Source: a virus
Strand: one strand, 5' to 3'
IMG/VR virus record: IMGVR_UViG_3300010883_010427
Coordinates: 1-49,292 of that record
DNA: 49,292 nt
Shown: positions 28,806-35,148 of the stretch, piece after piece
How positions within the stretch are numbered: position 1 is the first letter of the stretch
Layout of the letters: every line of letters begins with the position of its first letter
The notes under the pieces: generated by a model
Seen by the model: only the letters and a program-made list of their open reading frames with translations
What the model was told of the DNA's origin: nothing
Databases searched by the model: none
Made by a program: the position numbers and the translations under genes

Positions 28806-29350
28806 GTATCCCTTGGGATGCTTCAATGGTAGAGCGCGCGCAGGTAAAAGCTAAAAAGCTAGGAAGTATAAATAATTCAATATTAAAAGGTGGCGGCAAC
28901 GCCGCAGGTTATCTAGGGGAAGAAGCTGTTGCTTCTTATATCGAAGCTGAGATTATTAGTTGCGATGAAGGTAACGACAAGTATGACTACGACATTTGGA
29001 AAAATGATCGAAAAATAGAAGTTAAAACAAAAAGAAGGACGGTTGCTCCAGCAAACTTTTTTGATGTCTCTGTTGCCAAGGCAAGTAGACATCAGGCACC
29101 GGACTTATATATTTTTGTAAGCATTGAGTTTGAAAACATGACGATGGAAAACAACAGACGTGCCTATCGTGGTATTAAAAACATTTGGATAGTCGGACAG
29201 GCAGAGCCTGAAGATTACTTTACAAGAGCAAAGATTTGGAACGCTGGAGATATTGACAAAACCAACGGCTTTAAAACTCATGTAGACATGTACAACCTTC
29301 CTATATCAGAAATAGAACCATTAAATGATAGTTTGTTACCATCGAAGTAG
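28781..29350 (+). CDS. Putative PD-(D/E)XK nuclease-like protein
   Basis: A protein of about 189 residues from ATG 28781, with AGAGG six bases upstream. GGGNAAGYLGEEAVASYIE (a conserved Glu) precedes YDYDIWKNDRKIEVKTKRR, an Asp then Glu-x-Lys pattern. Together these form a PD-(D/E)XK signature. The second half has beta strands (LYIFVSIEFEN, IWIVGQAEPEDY). It could cleave or resolve DNA, but no close family is recognised. It overlaps the Cas4-like nuclease by 26 bases. Confidence 0.6.
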   Translation: MVTNKRIVSIPWDASMVERAQVKAKKLGSINNSILKGGGNAAGYLGEEAVASYIEAEIISCDEGNDKYDYDIWKNDRKIEVKTKRRTVAPANFFDVSVAKASRHQAPDLYIFVSIEFENMTMENNRRAYRGIKNIWIVGQAEPEDYFTRAKIWNAGDIDKTNGFKTHVDMYNLPISEIEPLNDSLLPSK

Positions 29351-30338
29351 TAGTTTAGGAACCTTAGAGTTCTGCGAGCAAAAATACTTCTTACAATACA
29401 ACTTGTCGTATAAAGACAAGCAAAACAAAAAAGCCTTAATGGGAACAATAGTTCACAAGGTAATGCAAACTCTTGGGGATAAAAAAATCGCCATGGCAAA
29501 GGGTTTAGATTTTGTAGACGATGAGGAAACAGGGAAAAAGATATCTTTTGAAGATTGCGATAATATTGAACTTCTTAATGACATAGCCTTTGATTACTAC
29601 AGCTCGTCTTTTCCAGAAGTTGATATAACTCAAGCAGACAAAAGAAAATGTCTATCGTGGGCTGAAAAAGCGGTAGCCTATAATGACGGCGCTCTTGACC
29701 CCAGAAACCAAGACGTGGATGCAACAGAGTTGTTCTTTGACTTTGAAATCAAAAAGCCTTGGGCAAAATATTCCTATGAACTCGATGGAAAAACAATTGA
29801 AGGCTACTTAGCAATCAAAGGGACTGTTGACCTAATAGTAAAACACTCAGATGATTACTATGAAATCATAGATTACAAAACTGGCAAAAGAATAAACTGG
29901 GCAACTGGAGAAGAAAAGACCCACGAAAAGCTACAAGGCGATACTCAATTGCTTTTGTATTATTATGCCCTTAAGAATATGTATCCAGAGCGTGAATTTT
30001 CAATTAGCATATACTATATCAATGCTGGCGGGTTGTTCTCGATGGCTTTTGACGAAGAAGACTACGCAAAAGCAGAAGAGATACTGAAAAATAAGTTTGA
30101 GCAAATAAGAGACACCCAACGTCCCAAACTCCTTTCTAATCAAAACAAGCATTGGAAGTGTCAAAAGCTCTGCAAATTTAGCGAACCCCATGAAGACACC
30201 GGTAAAAGTTTATGCCAACACATACGAGATGAAATTGTAGAAAAAGGCGTGAACGCAGTTGTTGAAAAGTACGGAAATATTGAAAAAATAACCACCTACG
30301 GAGACGGCGGTGGTAGATTAGCGGATAAGAAAAAATGA
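29325..30338 (+). CDS. Cas4/RecB-like PD-(D/E)XK nuclease with cysteine cluster
   Basis: A 337-residue nuclease. GTIVHKVMQTL supplies the motif-I His near residue 40, GTVDLIVKHS the Asp near 165, and IIDYKTGKR the E/D-x-K near 181. LQGDTQLLLYYYAL is the Q-containing motif near 205. Cysteines at FCEQKYFLQY near the N-terminus and three in WKCQKLCKFSE and SLCQH near 278-300 could bind an Fe-S cluster as in Cas4 and AddB-like exonucleases. It probably resects DNA ends for RecA. It ends with a 4-base overlap into the polymerase gene. Confidence 0.85.
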   Translation: MIVCYHRSSSLGTLEFCEQKYFLQYNLSYKDKQNKKALMGTIVHKVMQTLGDKKIAMAKGLDFVDDEETGKKISFEDCDNIELLNDIAFDYYSSSFPEVDITQADKRKCLSWAEKAVAYNDGALDPRNQDVDATELFFDFEIKKPWAKYSYELDGKTIEGYLAIKGTVDLIVKHSDDYYEIIDYKTGKRINWATGEEKTHEKLQGDTQLLLYYYALKNMYPEREFSISIYYINAGGLFSMAFDEEDYAKAEEILKNKFEQIRDTQRPKLLSNQNKHWKCQKLCKFSEPHEDTGKSLCQHIRDEIVEKGVNAVVEKYGNIEKITTYGDGGGRLADKKK

Positions 30339-32248
30339 ATTGGACACCTTTACATCTTCACACGCACTATAGTTTACTGGATGGCCTCTCAAAGCCCTCA
30401 CAGGTTGCCTCACGCTGTTCCAAGCTGGGTTATACTTCCTGTGCGATTACTGACCACGGCACTATATCGGGCGCTGTGGCCTTTACAAAGGAGTGCCGCA
30501 AAAAAAACATTAAACCAATTCTGGGGTGCGAGTTCTACCTAAGCCCTGCCGATTGTACAATTAAATCTCAGGAAAATAGGAAGCTCAGTCATCTTTGTGT
30601 CTTGGCCAAAAACAGGCAGGGGTGGGATAGCTTGATACAGGCGGTTTCAAAAAGTAATGACGAAGACAACTTTTACTACAAACCTCGTCTTGATCTTGAT
30701 ACACTGGGTGGATTTGCAGGTGAAAACTTAATTGCTTTTAGTGGTCATCTAGGTAGTGATCTAGCAAACGCCATATTTGCAGATGTCAAAACGGCCTATA
30801 ACGCATCCACCGAAGAAGAGGCTAAAAGATATATTCATCCAGAGTGGGTTGAAAAAGTTCTTTCTTTGGCAAACAGGTATAGAGATATTTTTGGCAAGGA
30901 GAATTTCTTTATAGAAATACAGGCTATAGACCAAAAGAACTCTCCTGCTGCCAGTTTAGTTGTTCAGGGTTTAAGATATGTAGCAAAAAAATATGGATTC
31001 CAAACCGTAGCTACGGCAGACTCTCACTATCCAGAAAAACAAGACTCTGTCGATCAATTGCTACTTCTATGCTCTGCTATGAAAACTACACTGCGAGGCA
31101 TCAAGAAAAAACTGGAAGAAAACAAAGACGTAGCTTTTGGGGGTTTTATGAAATCAAATAATTTTCATATCCCCTCTCTTGAAGAAATTGAAGTTGTCAA
31201 TAATGCAAACGAAATTGCAACCAGTATGCAAATAGCAGACATGTGCGAAGACTATAACATTCTTGAAAAACCCATGCTTCCTGAGTTCAAGTGTCCCGAC
31301 AACGCTTCTGAAGAAGGACATATTCGTCAGCTATGTAGAGATGCGTGGGTAGACAAGCTAATGCCAAGTGGAAAAATAACAACACCTGAAGATAAAAGCA
31401 TATACACAGAAAGAATTAAAAAAGAGTTAGACGTTATTAGTAAGGCAAATCTCTCCGGCTATTTCTTGATTGTTAGAGATATAGTAAATAGCGTTCGTGA
31501 GAAAAATCACATACCGGGGCCGGGACGAGGTTCTGCTGCCGGATGTTTGGTTTCGTATCTTATTGGCATCACCCAAGTAGACCCAATTGAATATGGTTTA
31601 TTATTTGAGCGTTTTTATAATGCTGGTCGTAATACAAAAGATCATGTGTCACTTCCAGATGTGGACATTGATGTTCCAGCCTCAAAGCGAGACGAGACCA
31701 TAGATTATATTAGAAGTAAATATGGAAAAGACCGTGTTGGACAAATGGTAACTTTTGGAAGACTTCAGGGACGAAGCGCCTTAAAAGAAGTCCTACGTAT
31801 GAACGAAGCTTGTAGTTATGACGAAATGAATGTTATAACAAAAAGCCTACCCCACGAACATGAAGTTTCTGACCAGTTGGCAGAGATGGATGATCCATCA
31901 ATTATACGATGGACATTAATGAACCAGCCAGAAACCCTAAGAGATTATTGCCGAATAAACGATAGTGGAAAACTTGAAGGAGATTACGCTAAGCTTTTTA
32001 CACAGGCAATGAGAATAGAAGGAACTTTTAAATCGCAAGGAAAACACGCTGCTGGAGTTGTGATTTCGTCTCATAATCTCAACGATGTTTGTCCTATGGT
32101 TAGAGACAAAAAAGGGTCTGAAAAGATTGCCGGAATGGAAATGAACGATCTGGAAGCTATGGGGCATGTCAAATTTGACATACTTGGAATTTCTTTACTA
32201 GACAAGGTTATGGGAGTACGGGATCAATTGGAGAAGTCGAATGTTTGA
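30335..32248 (+). CDS. dnaE: DNA polymerase III alpha subunit, N-terminal part (PHP and palm)
   Basis: A 637-residue protein containing the first half of a C-family DNA polymerase. The PHP domain has HLHTHYSLLDG, ITDHGTISG and GCEFYLSP. The polymerase core has GPGRGSAAGCL near residue 394, the catalytic pair in LPDVDIDVP near 441-446, and GQMVTFGRLQGRSALKEVLR. The third catalytic Asp is in VKFDILGI near 614. The protein stops soon after, before the FQLES fingers motif. The remainder is encoded at 33123. No intein sequence is seen at the junction. Its start overlaps the nuclease gene by 4 bases. Confidence 0.9.
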   Translation: MNWTPLHLHTHYSLLDGLSKPSQVASRCSKLGYTSCAITDHGTISGAVAFTKECRKKNIKPILGCEFYLSPADCTIKSQENRKLSHLCVLAKNRQGWDSLIQAVSKSNDEDNFYYKPRLDLDTLGGFAGENLIAFSGHLGSDLANAIFADVKTAYNASTEEEAKRYIHPEWVEKVLSLANRYRDIFGKENFFIEIQAIDQKNSPAASLVVQGLRYVAKKYGFQTVATADSHYPEKQDSVDQLLLLCSAMKTTLRGIKKKLEENKDVAFGGFMKSNNFHIPSLEEIEVVNNANEIATSMQIADMCEDYNILEKPMLPEFKCPDNASEEGHIRQLCRDAWVDKLMPSGKITTPEDKSIYTERIKKELDVISKANLSGYFLIVRDIVNSVREKNHIPGPGRGSAAGCLVSYLIGITQVDPIEYGLLFERFYNAGRNTKDHVSLPDVDIDVPASKRDETIDYIRSKYGKDRVGQMVTFGRLQGRSALKEVLRMNEACSYDEMNVITKSLPHEHEVSDQLAEMDDPSIIRWTLMNQPETLRDYCRINDSGKLEGDYAKLFTQAMRIEGTFKSQGKHAAGVVISSHNLNDVCPMVRDKKGSEKIAGMEMNDLEAMGHVKFDILGISLLDKVMGVRDQLEKSNV

Positions 32249-32462
32249 CAAGCAAAGCTGGCGTGGAAAAATAAAAAATAAAATATCTAATGGCTTTTAC
32301 GAAGAGTATAAAGGTCTTTCTATTTGTAAGATAAATGATTTTTACCCACCTCTGAGTGGTAAGATAAAATATCAGGTTCATTCATACTTCTATAGCTATT
32401 TATTTGAAGATATTGAAGAAGCGCTGGATAAATTTTTTGAAATAAGAAGGAAAATCAAATGA
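32241..32462 (+). CDS. Small protein within the split polymerase locus
   Basis: A 73-residue protein, basic at the N-terminus (SWRGKIKNKIS) and aromatic in the middle (INDFYPPLSGKIKYQVH). It ends in a charged helix. It overlaps both the polymerase N-part gene (8 bases) and the exonuclease gene (4 bases), so it appears to be translated with them. No homing endonuclease or intein motif is visible. It could be an accessory subunit linking the two polymerase halves, which is speculation. Confidence 0.5.
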   Translation: MFDKQSWRGKIKNKISNGFYEEYKGLSICKINDFYPPLSGKIKYQVHSYFYSYLFEDIEEALDKFFEIRRKIK

Positions 32463-33145
32463 ATTATAGAGACATAATAGTTTTTGACTTTGAAACAGGA
32501 TCAAGAAATCCTTACAAAACCCAACCAGTTCAAATTGCGGCGGTGGCCATACATGGCCGAAAGCTAACAATACAACCAGAAGGGTATTTTGAAAGCTTGA
32601 TTCGTCCAGAACTAGACGACGAGAGGGCTATTGAGTTGGGGTTAGACCCGATTGAAGACGAAGCCTTGGCTGTGAACGGCAAAACGCGCAAAGAGCTTGC
32701 GAAGGCTCCACAACCAAAAGCCGTGTGGAAGAAGTTTACTAACTTTGTAGATAAATACAACTTTAAGAAAACTAATTTCTATGCGCCTCTGGCTGCTGGT
32801 TACAATATTATTGGTTTTGACTTACCTATTGTTGACCGCATGTGTGAGCAGTACGGCCCGAAACATAAAAAATCGGGAAGACAGGGGTTGTTCAACCCTA
32901 TCTATAAGTTAGATTTGATGCACACCGTGTGGATGTGGATGGAAAATAACGCAGACGTAAACTCCCTAAGCATGGATGCTATGCGAGATTTGCTTTCTAT
33001 GGATAAAGAAAACGCACACGACGCTTTGCAGGACGTTAAGGATACGGCTAATATTCTTATTGCTTTTATGAAACTGCACAGAAGAATTGCACCGAAGGTT
33101 AAATTTGAAAAGGCTTTTGCAGATGGAAACAACTTGCACATCTAA
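32459..33145 (+). CDS. DnaQ-like DEDDh 3'-5' exonuclease
   Basis: A 228-residue exonuclease. Exo I is VFDFETGSRN near residue 10 (Asp-x-Glu). Exo II is YNIIGFDLPIVDRMCE near 115, with the family's Asp. Exo III is AHDALQDVKDT near 182, with the catalytic His and Asp. It would proofread for the split polymerase, matching the epsilon-alpha partnership of bacteria. Its gene lies between the two polymerase pieces and its last 23 bases overlap the second piece. The insert between Exo I and Exo II is longer than in RNase T. Confidence 0.85.
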   Translation: MNYRDIIVFDFETGSRNPYKTQPVQIAAVAIHGRKLTIQPEGYFESLIRPELDDERAIELGLDPIEDEALAVNGKTRKELAKAPQPKAVWKKFTNFVDKYNFKKTNFYAPLAAGYNIIGFDLPIVDRMCEQYGPKHKKSGRQGLFNPIYKLDLMHTVWMWMENNADVNSLSMDAMRDLLSMDKENAHDALQDVKDTANILIAFMKLHRRIAPKVKFEKAFADGNNLHI

Positions 33146-34730
33146 ATCTTTTGATCCAATAAGTTTGGAATTCAATAACGAAAATGTTTGGGACTTAATA
33201 TGCGCAGGAAAAACCAAGGGTATCTTTCAATTAGAAAGTAATCTTGGCAAATCTTGGGCAAAACGTGTTAAGCCTAGAAATATAGAAGAGCTTGCCGCTT
33301 TGGTTTCAATTATCAGGCCGGGAACTCTAAAGGCTATCCAAGATGGAAAATCAATGACCCAAAGGTTTGTTGATCGAAAAAATCTTACAGAAGAAATAAC
33401 ATACCTTCACCCATCTCTTGAGCCAATCCTAAAAGGAACTCAAGGTGTTCTTGTTTACCAAGAGCAGTCCATGAAGATCGCTCAGCAGCTTGCAGGTTTT
33501 AACCTTCAGGAAGCTGACAATCTTCGTAAGGCTATCGGTAAAAAGAAAGCCAATCTTATGGCAGAGGTAAAAAAAGCTTTTCTGGAAGGCGCTATTAAAA
33601 AGAAGGTTGTTAGTAAAGAAGACGCGGAAGAAATCTTTAGCTGGATTGAAAAGTCTAGCAGGTATGCATTTAATAAATCTCACGCTGTCTCATACGCTAT
33701 CTGTGCGTACTGGAGTGCGTACGCAAAGACGTACCACCCTCTTGAATTTTATTGCAACTACTTAATATATTCATCTGGCAAGCCCGACCCGCAACAAGAA
33801 GTAAAAGAGTTGGTAAACGACGCCAAGAATAACGAAATCTATGTAAGCCCTCCTTCAATAAAAGCTATTAACACGCTTACTGATATTATTGATGGTCAAA
33901 TACACTTTGGTCTTCTTAGCGTCAAGTCTGTTGGTATGAAACAAATAGAAAAATTCAAAACTGTTATCTCTAGCGTAGAAACAGAGCTAGAAGAAAAACA
34001 CCTATCTGACTGGTCTTGGTATGAGTTCCTTACATTAGCTTCTCCACGAGTTAATTCAAGAATGCTCATAGCTCTAATATCAGTTGGTTTCTTTTCTCAT
34101 TTACCAGAATCAAGGCAGAAAATGCTTGATGAATTTGACACTTGGAACAGCCTGACAAAAAAAGAACAGGAGTGGGCATTTGTCAATCATTCTAAATACA
34201 AAGATGTTTTAAATTTACTAAAAGCGATGACCCCAACCAAAAAAGAGGGCGGGGCAACCTTCAATGTAAAAAGATCTTCCATGCTGAGGGATTTGGTTTA
34301 CCATCTTGAGACCCCCGCCTATTCATTAAAGGATGATCCAGAATGGGTTATTAGAAGCGAGGAAAACTATTTGGGGGTATCCTTAACTTATTCTAGGATT
34401 GAGGCGTGTGACACGCATTTAGCAAACACCACGATACGAGAATTCATCGAGGGAAAAAGAGGTGATATAAAAATGGCCGTGACAATATCAGAGGTGAAAA
34501 GATACACAACGAAGTCGGGTAAAATGAAGGGTTCAGAAATGGCTTTTCTGTGCGTTGAGGATAAGACTGGCACTTTGGACACTGTTACAATTTTTTCAGA
34601 AAAGTGGAAAGAGTACAAGGGCTTACTTTACGAGAGTAACAACGTAATCATTTGCGGCGGGAGTTCAAAAAGAAAAAGATATCAGGTAGATGATGGATTC
34701 ATCGTTGATCGGATTATAGAATTAGGTTGA
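33123..34730 (+). CDS. dnaE: DNA polymerase III alpha subunit, C-terminal part (fingers, HhH, OB)
   Basis: A protein of about 535 residues from ATG 33123, with AAGG 9 bases upstream. The longer TTG-started extension falls inside the exonuclease gene and adds nothing family-like. It starts in the segment that follows the third catalytic Asp in DnaE. GIFQLESNLGKSWA lies near residue 33, VYQEQSMKIAQQLAGF near 110, SRYAFNKSHAVSYAI near 177 and an OB-type domain near 450-535 (AVTISEVKRYTTKSG, LDTVTIFSEKW). With the first part (637 residues) the total is about the size of bacterial alpha. No intein halves are seen. Confidence 0.9.
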   Translation: METTCTSKSFDPISLEFNNENVWDLICAGKTKGIFQLESNLGKSWAKRVKPRNIEELAALVSIIRPGTLKAIQDGKSMTQRFVDRKNLTEEITYLHPSLEPILKGTQGVLVYQEQSMKIAQQLAGFNLQEADNLRKAIGKKKANLMAEVKKAFLEGAIKKKVVSKEDAEEIFSWIEKSSRYAFNKSHAVSYAICAYWSAYAKTYHPLEFYCNYLIYSSGKPDPQQEVKELVNDAKNNEIYVSPPSIKAINTLTDIIDGQIHFGLLSVKSVGMKQIEKFKTVISSVETELEEKHLSDWSWYEFLTLASPRVNSRMLIALISVGFFSHLPESRQKMLDEFDTWNSLTKKEQEWAFVNHSKYKDVLNLLKAMTPTKKEGGATFNVKRSSMLRDLVYHLETPAYSLKDDPEWVIRSEENYLGVSLTYSRIEACDTHLANTTIREFIEGKRGDIKMAVTISEVKRYTTKSGKMKGSEMAFLCVEDKTGTLDTVTIFSEKWKEYKGLLYESNNVIICGGSSKRKRYQVDDGFIVDRIIELG

Positions 34731-34797: not shown

Positions 34798-35148
34798 ATG
34801 AATTCAATTACCAACTACTGTCGTTTTATTGGTAGGTTAGCAGAAAATCCTAAAATAGCAAATCTTGAAAATACTCAACTTTGCACTTTTACCCTTTCTG
34901 TTACTGAATACAGGAAGGAAAGGGATGGAACTAAGAAAAAGAGTGTCAATTTTTTTGAATTTGAGGCTTGGGATTCTGGTGGCGCAGCTATAGAAAAACA
35001 CTGTGAAAAAGGAGACACTATTGATCTAGTCGCCTCCGCTAGAAATAACTCTTGGTTAGATAAAGATGGTAATAAAAAACTCTCCACAAAATTCAGAGTC
35101 AAAGAGTTCAAGCTCTTTAACTCCACAGAACAAAAGCAAGAAGCTTAA
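34798..35148 (+). CDS. ssb: Single-stranded DNA-binding protein
   Basis: A 116-residue OB-fold SSB. NYCRFIGRLAENPKIA opens the fold like NKVILIGRLG in bacterial SSB, with LCTFTLSVTEYRKER as the second strand pair and VNFFEFEAWDSGGAAIEKHC as the WG/AEF-type segment. KGDTIDLVASARNNSW matches the KGS strand. The acidic tail of bacterial SSB is missing; it ends EQKQEA. GAGGA is six bases before the ATG. It protects ssDNA during replication. The second sigma-like gene begins within its 3-prime end. Confidence 0.88.
   Translation: MNSITNYCRFIGRLAENPKIANLENTQLCTFTLSVTEYRKERDGTKKKSVNFFEFEAWDSGGAAIEKHCEKGDTIDLVASARNNSWLDKDGNKKLSTKFRVKEFKLFNSTEQKQEA

What the first reader, a model, noticed from the sequence alone, without database searches (positions are those of the whole stretch)
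30335..34730. DNA polymerase III alpha split into two genes around an exonuclease
The N-part has PHP and all three catalytic aspartates (last in VKFDILGI). The C-part starts just after and has GIFQLES, the FNKSH region and an OB domain. Between them lie a 73-residue gene and a DnaQ-like exonuclease. The lengths sum to about 1170 residues, as in normal DnaE, so nothing is lost. The break is not at the cyanobacterial split-intein site (before FNKSH), and no intein halves are present. The halves must assemble without ligation, perhaps aided by the small protein or exonuclease.
Basis: partly seen in the sequence, partly recalled or inferred. Interest (0 to 1): 0.85.

Follow-up and report, generated by a model that had tools for sequence, protein, structure and literature searches.

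The report
Viral DNA polymerase III in two genes
A large group of uncultivated bacterial viruses makes its main DNA-copying enzyme as two separate proteins, cut cleanly between the catalytic "palm" and the "fingers" with other genes sitting in the gap; the cut is old and conserved, and the halves almost certainly fit together without being rejoined, a known trick for other viral enzymes but not described for a full-length enzyme of this type as the only replicase.

Summary
DnaE (Pol III alpha) is encoded as DnaE-N (30335-32248: PHP, palm, all three catalytic aspartates) and DnaE-C (33123-34730: fingers, HhH, OB fold), cut in the palm/fingers linker with nothing missing. A 73-aa gene and a DEDDh DnaQ exonuclease lie between; all overlap. 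It is no sequencing error: all 202 fetched family loci outside the window (143 distinct DnaE-C proteins, down to about 45% identity) are split at this point with the exonuclease between; none is fused. Twenty records of 67-161 kb hold exactly one palm and one fingers domain in separate frames, and no PolA or PolB. Both halves are under strong purifying selection and co-evolve. Inteins, introns and ribosomal bypass are not supported: tails at the cut are too short, while true split inteins elsewhere in the same genes of relatives are readily detected. The small protein and exonuclease are not required for the split: the small protein is undetected in about half the family, and deeper relatives (L139, L320) have other genes in the gap. 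Best reading: an old non-covalent two-subunit Pol III alpha. Precedents: split T4-type gp43, minimal split Pol III of jumbo phages, two-gene DnaE in Microbacterium phages. New variant of a known kind.

The parts
30335..32248 (+). DnaE-N: N-terminal half of DNA polymerase III alpha (PHP + palm/thumb)
   Evidence: Pfam PHP 2.8e-39, DNA_pol3_alpha 1.2e-68; PHROG 405 columns 42-617; aligns to Taq/E. coli alpha
31658..31666 (+). first two catalytic aspartates, D442 and D444 (PDVDID), invariant in 27 aligned sequences
   Evidence: alignment A2; aligned with PDIDTD of Taq alpha
32177..32179 (+). third catalytic aspartate D615 (VKFDILG), 22 residues before the stop
   Evidence: alignment A2; aligned with KMDFLG of Taq alpha; tail length 15-28 residues in 202 of 204 loci
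32241..32462 (+). 73-aa lineage-specific small protein S, overlaps the end of DnaE-N
   Evidence: purifying selection; alpha-beta4-alpha model, pLDDT 84.8, no PDB match; present in 109 of 206 loci
32459..33145 (+). DnaQ-type DEDDh 3'-5' exonuclease X, starts in ATGA overlap with S
   Evidence: Pfam RNase_T 6.7e-15, PHROG 192 1.1e-25; D10, E12, D121, H187, D192 invariant in 25 sequences
33123..34730 (+). DnaE-C: C-terminal half of DNA polymerase III alpha (fingers, HhH, OB), start overlaps the end of X by 23 bases
   Evidence: Pfam DNA_pol3_finger 1e-47; PHROG 405 columns 615-1079; model pLDDT 87.6, Foldseek E 9e-23 to Taq alpha
34467..34721 (+). OB-fold of DnaE-C (model residues 449-533, five strands)
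   Evidence: AlphaFold model and Foldseek matches to OB domains
29325..30338 (+). conserved upstream neighbour: PD-(D/E)XK (Cas4/Dna2-like) nuclease
   Evidence: Pfam PDDEXK_1 5.7e-23; upstream of N in nearly all loci from the two window-query scans that extend that far
34798..35148 (+). conserved downstream neighbour: SSB
   Evidence: Pfam SSB 2.6e-13; downstream of C in most loci of the two window-query scans

Best explanation
This is the replicative C-family DNA polymerase of a large, uncultivated phage lineage, encoded as two subunits cut in the linker between palm and fingers. SHOWN: both halves are complete, conserved, under purifying selection, always on the same strand and in the same order, and are the only recognisable polymerase parts in 20 large relatives. 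INFERRED: overlapping, probably translationally coupled genes make DnaE-N (PHP, palm, all catalytic aspartates) and DnaE-C (fingers, HhH, OB); these fold separately and dock non-covalently through the normal palm-fingers interface of Pol III alpha, giving an active alpha, proofread by the DEDDh exonuclease X encoded between them. The small protein S is a lineage-specific accessory, not the glue. ORIGIN (inferred, about 0.5): a gene, most likely a homing endonuclease, inserted in the linker of an intact dnaE; the protein tolerated the cut, the invader was lost, and the gap became a landing site for other genes (RNase HII, macrodomain-like, DnaQ, ThyX and others).
For: All 202 family loci fetched besides the window (143 distinct C proteins, 99 clusters at 95% identity) are split with X in the gap; none fused. 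Twenty records of 67-161 kb: exactly one palm and one finger domain, separate frames, no PolA, no PolB, with positive controls. The split clade gets SH-aLRT 100, 99 in a smaller set. Strong purifying selection: pN 0.09-0.22 against pS 0.60-0.93 for N, S, X and C. Halves co-evolve: partial distance correlation N-C 0.72 given X and PDDEXK, against 0.14-0.36 for the other four pairings computed. The cut lies in an inter-domain linker and C alone is modelled confidently. N tail 15-28 residues in 202 of 204 and C head at most 55 residues: no room for intein halves. Precedent: split gp43 subunits of Aeromonas phage 25 co-purify with polymerase activity, split NrdA of Aeh1 is active (PMC2988022).
Against: No biochemistry: assembly and activity are inferred. 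The relatives are virus fragments, so another polymerase outside the known families or beyond contig ends cannot be excluded. The heterodimer could not be modelled (single-chain tool). No clamp of the bacterial type (PF00712) was found in 23 records, and no clamp-binding motif was identified in C, so processivity is unexplained. Co-evolution of N and C is also expected for any linked replication genes, although less strongly here.
Confidence: 0.85

Rival explanations
1. The exonuclease X and/or small protein S is a required assembly factor that bridges the two halves, so the working enzyme is an obligate three- or four-part complex.
For: X lies in the gap in 202 of 202 family loci besides the window and keeps all catalytic residues; S is under purifying selection; gene overlap suggests coupled synthesis.
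Against: S is undetected in 94 of 206 loci. L139 and L320, split at the same site, have no X in the gap but DUF4326 plus a macrodomain-like gene, or RNase HII plus a Zn-ribbon. Distances of X correlate only weakly with N once C is accounted for (0.15) and modestly with C (0.36).
Confidence: 0.12
2. The halves are rejoined covalently by an unrecognised trans-splicing system at the palm/fingers junction.
For: Split inteins do occur elsewhere in the same genes of relatives (L045 at FNK/SHG, L306 at GPGRG/SAAG), so the lineage tolerates trans-splicing.
Against: At this junction no intein domain is called in the window proteins, while Hint/intein domains are detected in the in-family controls; tails are only 15-28 and at most 55 residues, too short for known intein halves; the tail sequences show no shared nucleophile or HN-Cys/Ser signature.
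Confidence: 0.04
3. An RNA-level event (intron splicing) or ribosomal bypass joins the two reading frames.
For: Gap flanked by two parts of one gene; otherwise none found.
Against: The 874-nt gap is wholly coding, with overlapping genes under purifying selection; no Rfam intron; gap length varies from about 0.7 kb to about 4.8 kb with different genes.
Confidence: 0.01
4. The break is an assembly error or a decaying pseudogene, with the host polymerase doing the work.
For: Low-coverage errors do mimic splits: L154 (bacterial dnaE, coverage 1.05) has a single in-frame stop near this site.
Against: Same cut in 143 distinct proteins, strong purifying selection on both halves, invariant catalytic residues.
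Confidence: 0.01

Closest known systems
Split Pol III alpha of group 2.2 jumbo phages (Iyer et al. 2021, PMC7824862)
   Same: Pol III alpha catalytic core encoded as two stand-alone proteins thought to reconstitute the enzyme without ligation.
   Different: Theirs is a minimal version without the other Pol III domains, encoded by distant genes and accompanied by a PolB. Here the enzyme is full-length with PHP and OB, the genes are adjacent, and no other polymerase is detected.
Split gp43 (PolB) of Aeromonas phages 25 and 44RR; split NrdA of Aeh1; T4 gp39/gp60 (reviewed in PMC2988022)
   Same: An essential phage enzyme made from two polypeptides without intein; split gp43 parts co-purify with activity and split NrdA is active.
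   Different: Different enzyme families; phage-specific, with a homing endonuclease or untranslated insert at the cut. Here the cut is clade-wide and no homing endonuclease is at the junction in the window.
Cyanobacterial split DnaE with Ssp/Npu split intein
   Same: DnaE encoded in two genes.
   Different: Cut lies near FNKSH inside the C half and is rejoined by intein trans-splicing; here the cut is at the palm/fingers linker and no intein is present.
Two-gene DnaE of Microbacterium cluster EF (PMC7302621), and of phages Hager, Beyoncage and MontyDev
   Same: DnaE in two phage genes, intein-free as annotated.
   Different: In Hager, Beyoncage and MontyDev the aligned break is near window residue 322, between PHP and palm, rather than palm/fingers. 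Whether Hager belongs to the cluster described in the paper was not checked.
Rossellomorea phage phiT1 gp20/gp19/gp18 (PV767480)
   Same: Cultivated phage with DnaE cut at the same palm/fingers junction with a 49-aa gene between.
   Different: No exonuclease in the gap; placed among unsplit DnaE of other phages rather than in this clade, though a single origin is not rejected (AU p 0.317). Annotated but, as far as I found, not discussed.

Membership tests
C-family DNA polymerase III alpha (DnaE) | PHP domain, palm with three catalytic aspartates | tested here: met
C-family DNA polymerase III alpha (DnaE) | fingers, HhH and OB domains | tested here: met
   fingers by Pfam, weak HHH_6, OB by model and Foldseek
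C-family DNA polymerase III alpha (DnaE) | single polypeptide chain | tested here: not met
   hence a split variant, not an ordinary DnaE
C-family DNA polymerase III alpha (DnaE) | sliding-clamp binding motif / clamp partner | tested here: inconclusive
   no PF00712 clamp in 23 records; no conserved motif identified in the C alignment by eye
Cyanobacterial-type split-intein DnaE | intein halves at the cut | tested here: not met
Cyanobacterial-type split-intein DnaE | cut adjacent to FNKSH | tested here: not met
   FNKSH is intact inside DnaE-C
Minimal split Pol III alpha of jumbo phages (Iyer 2021) | minimal core, distant genes, accompanied by PolB | tested here: not met
   PHP present, genes adjacent, no PF00136 in 20 records
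Genes-in-pieces created by homing endonuclease | one gene cut into two ORFs without intein | tested here: met
Genes-in-pieces created by homing endonuclease | homing endonuclease at the cut | tested here: not met
   none in the window; LAGLIDADG genes were seen only at a second cut of a few relatives (L052, L055, L286)
Genes-in-pieces created by homing endonuclease | separate polypeptides form an active enzyme | not testable with these tools
   needs co-purification and an extension assay
DnaQ (DEDDh) proofreading exonuclease | five catalytic residues D, E, D, H, D | tested here: met
   D10, E12, D121, H187, D192 invariant

The most novel reading that the evidence does not exclude
The cut has become functional: palm and fingers are distinct subunits whose docking is an assembly or control step of the replicase, with the exonuclease recruited at the cut to make a three-subunit core, and with new structures evolved on the cut ends, such as the CxC...C N-terminal extension of DnaE-C (76 of 206 loci, including the deepest member L320).
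Probability: 0.18. Interest if true: 0.78.

Novelty: new variant of a known kind. Interest (0 to 1): 0.6.

Why it matters
It shows that a full-length bacterial-type replicase can live as two non-covalent parts cut between palm and fingers, over a long span of evolution and as the only detectable polymerase of a large virus group. That gives natural, ready-made fragments to ask how the fingers dock on the palm, a separable Pol III alpha for biochemistry, and a well-sampled series of cuts (palm/fingers, at PDxDxD, PHP/palm, plus true split inteins) in one enzyme with which to study how genes become fragmented. It also warns annotation pipelines that the two halves are one enzyme.

Tried and rejected
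Sequencing error or pseudogene: rejected. Inteins at the junction: rejected. Group I/II intron: no Rfam match. S as universal glue: rejected, missing from about half of the loci. Function of S: AlphaFold model good (84.8) but no PDB match better than E 0.97; no Pfam or convincing PHROG family; no match in the phage collection. Apparent split in bacterial dnaE L154: a single stop in a coverage-1.05 contig, treated as error. One scan with the L139 C half found no further relatives. AU test on 64 rows did not finish; a 25-row, simpler-model version did and does not exclude a common origin with phiT1. A first classification of new loci mis-set the DnaE-N frame and was redone. A number of contigs were fetched twice, hence the count by distinct proteins. 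Literature searches found no paper on this arrangement in the open-access library.

Full report
WHAT IS THERE. DnaE-N (30335-32248) carries PHP and palm with the three catalytic aspartates (D442, D444, D615). DnaE-C (start most likely ATG 33123, end 34730) carries fingers, a weak HhH match and, by structure prediction, an OB fold. PHROG 405, a phage DNA polymerase family, is covered over columns 42-617 by N and 615-1079 by C, so no segment is missing at the break. Against solved Pol III alpha the cut falls between Taq 626 and 645 (E. coli 565 and 585), the linker from the last palm element to the fingers. Genes overlap all along: N/S by 8 bases, S/X by ATGA, X/C by 23 bases.

IT IS REAL AND OLD. 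Scans of viral contigs returned 135 loci for the two halves and more for a deeper relative. All 202 family loci besides the window in which N, X and C can be read are split with the exonuclease X between; none is fused (an earlier count was 0 fused of 122). Because some contigs were fetched twice, the fair count is 143 distinct DnaE-C proteins, 99 clusters at 95% and 26 at 60% identity. In contrast 75 of 80 GTDB loci classified are unsplit; the five split ones are two in-family contigs (L137, L138), the outlier L139, and two apparent frame breaks in bacterial genes. A tree of joined halves puts the split family in one clade (SH-aLRT 100; 99 in a reduced set), with L320 and then L139 branching first. 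The cultivated Rossellomorea phage phiT1 (PV767480) is cut at the same place (gp20/gp19/gp18) but groups with unsplit DnaE of other phages; the AU test does not reject a single origin (p 0.317), so an independent second cut is likely but not proven.

IT IS THE WORKING POLYMERASE. In 20 records of 67-161 kb there is exactly one palm and one finger domain, in separate frames, and no family A or B polymerase; control genomes rang as expected. Catalytic residues are invariant. pN is 0.09-0.22 against pS 0.60-0.93 for all four genes (several dS values are saturated). Distances of N and C stay tightly correlated after removing those of X and the PDDEXK neighbour (0.72, against 0.14-0.36 for the other four pairings computed). 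These records are fragments, so a polymerase outside known families cannot be excluded.

HOW IT WORKS. Joining at protein level by intein is not supported: residues beyond the third catalytic aspartate number 15-28 in 202 of 204 loci, and DnaE-C starts at most 55 residues before FQLE, while true split inteins elsewhere in the same genes of relatives (L045 at FNK/SHG with a free-standing NUMOD3/DUF559 endonuclease; L306 at GPGRG/SAAG) are picked up by Pfam. An intron or ribosomal bypass would have to skip from about 0.7 kb to 4.8 kb of variable coding sequence and no intron is seen by Rfam. The best-supported model is non-covalent docking of two folded subunits through the normal palm-fingers interface; precedents are split gp43, whose parts co-purify with polymerase activity, and split NrdA, which is active (PMC2988022). 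C alone is predicted with confidence (pLDDT 87.6). The heterodimer itself could not be modelled here.

ROLE OF THE GENES IN THE GAP. X is a DEDDh exonuclease with all residues invariant, the natural proofreader; the PHP of many relatives has lost ligands or about 110 residues, so PHP proofreading is not general. S is a selected but lineage-specific protein (109 of 206 loci) with an alpha-beta4-alpha model and no PDB match. In L139 the gap holds a DUF4326 protein and a macrodomain-like protein (the latter named from its sequence only; Pfam calls nothing); in L320 RNase HII and a Zn-ribbon; in others also TylF-type methyltransferase, ThyX, NUC1 nuclease or sugar genes. The gap is thus a landing site, and neither S nor X explains why the halves hold together.

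ORIGIN. Further cuts inside this family (L052, L055, L286) lie at the catalytic SLPDID motif and carry LAGLIDADG endonuclease genes with no intein signature in the flanking pieces, and phage G has a homing endonuclease in its dnaE, while Bacillus phage Jayan is cut there and its close relative PS1 is intact. A homing-endonuclease insertion later lost is therefore the likely origin of the palm/fingers cut, but no direct trace remains (inference).

NOVELTY. [quoted passage not shown] A full-length, palm/fingers-split Pol III alpha as the only detectable replicase of a broad virus clade was not found in the literature searched. I file it as a new variant of a known kind.

Noticed in passing
L045:11515-14340: DnaE-C of this relative is cut a second time at FNK|SHG by a split intein, with a free-standing NUMOD3/DUF559 endonuclease gene between the halves; three residues from the cyanobacterial DnaE intein site.
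   Followed up: partly
L306:1787-4126: Split intein in DnaE-N at GPGRG|SAAG; the next gene begins with the C-intein ending in VHN-S.
   Followed up: partly
L035:11624-13975 and L047:10500-12866: Intein in DnaE-C at RPG|CLKA in two distant relatives; in L035 Pfam calls an intein splicing domain with an HNH endonuclease.
   Followed up: partly
L052:7895-10746, L055:7277-10406, L286:1026-4101: DnaE-N cut again at the catalytic SLPDID motif by a LAGLIDADG endonuclease gene; piece 1 gains a ~15-aa tail, piece 2 a ~90-aa new N-terminal region, no intein signature. DnaE would then be in three pieces.
   Followed up: partly
N-terminus of DnaE-C in L079-L084, L137, L138, most of L244-L315, L320: CxC...C extension (such as CGCKF...LDC..TWDLI) at the new N-terminus created by the cut, possible metal site, 76 of 206 loci; absent in the window clade.
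   Followed up: partly
L090-L135, DnaE-N residues ~116-230 (window numbering): About 110 residues of the PHP domain are deleted in most members of a whole subclade.
   Followed up: no
L139 (SHMW01000005, 104 kb, in a Lokiarchaeota MAG bin): Deep relative with the same split, a macrodomain-like and a DUF4326 gene in the gap; whether the contig is a virus of that archaeon or mis-binned is open.
   Followed up: no
L221 (phage phiT1), L219 (Jayan), L234-L237 (Hager, Beyoncage, MontyDev, phage G): Phage DnaE genes are cut at three recurrent places: PHP/palm, PDxDxD motif, palm/fingers.
   Followed up: partly
23 records including 194,787-bp G021: No bacterial-type sliding clamp (PF00712) in any record, so processivity factor unknown.
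   Followed up: no
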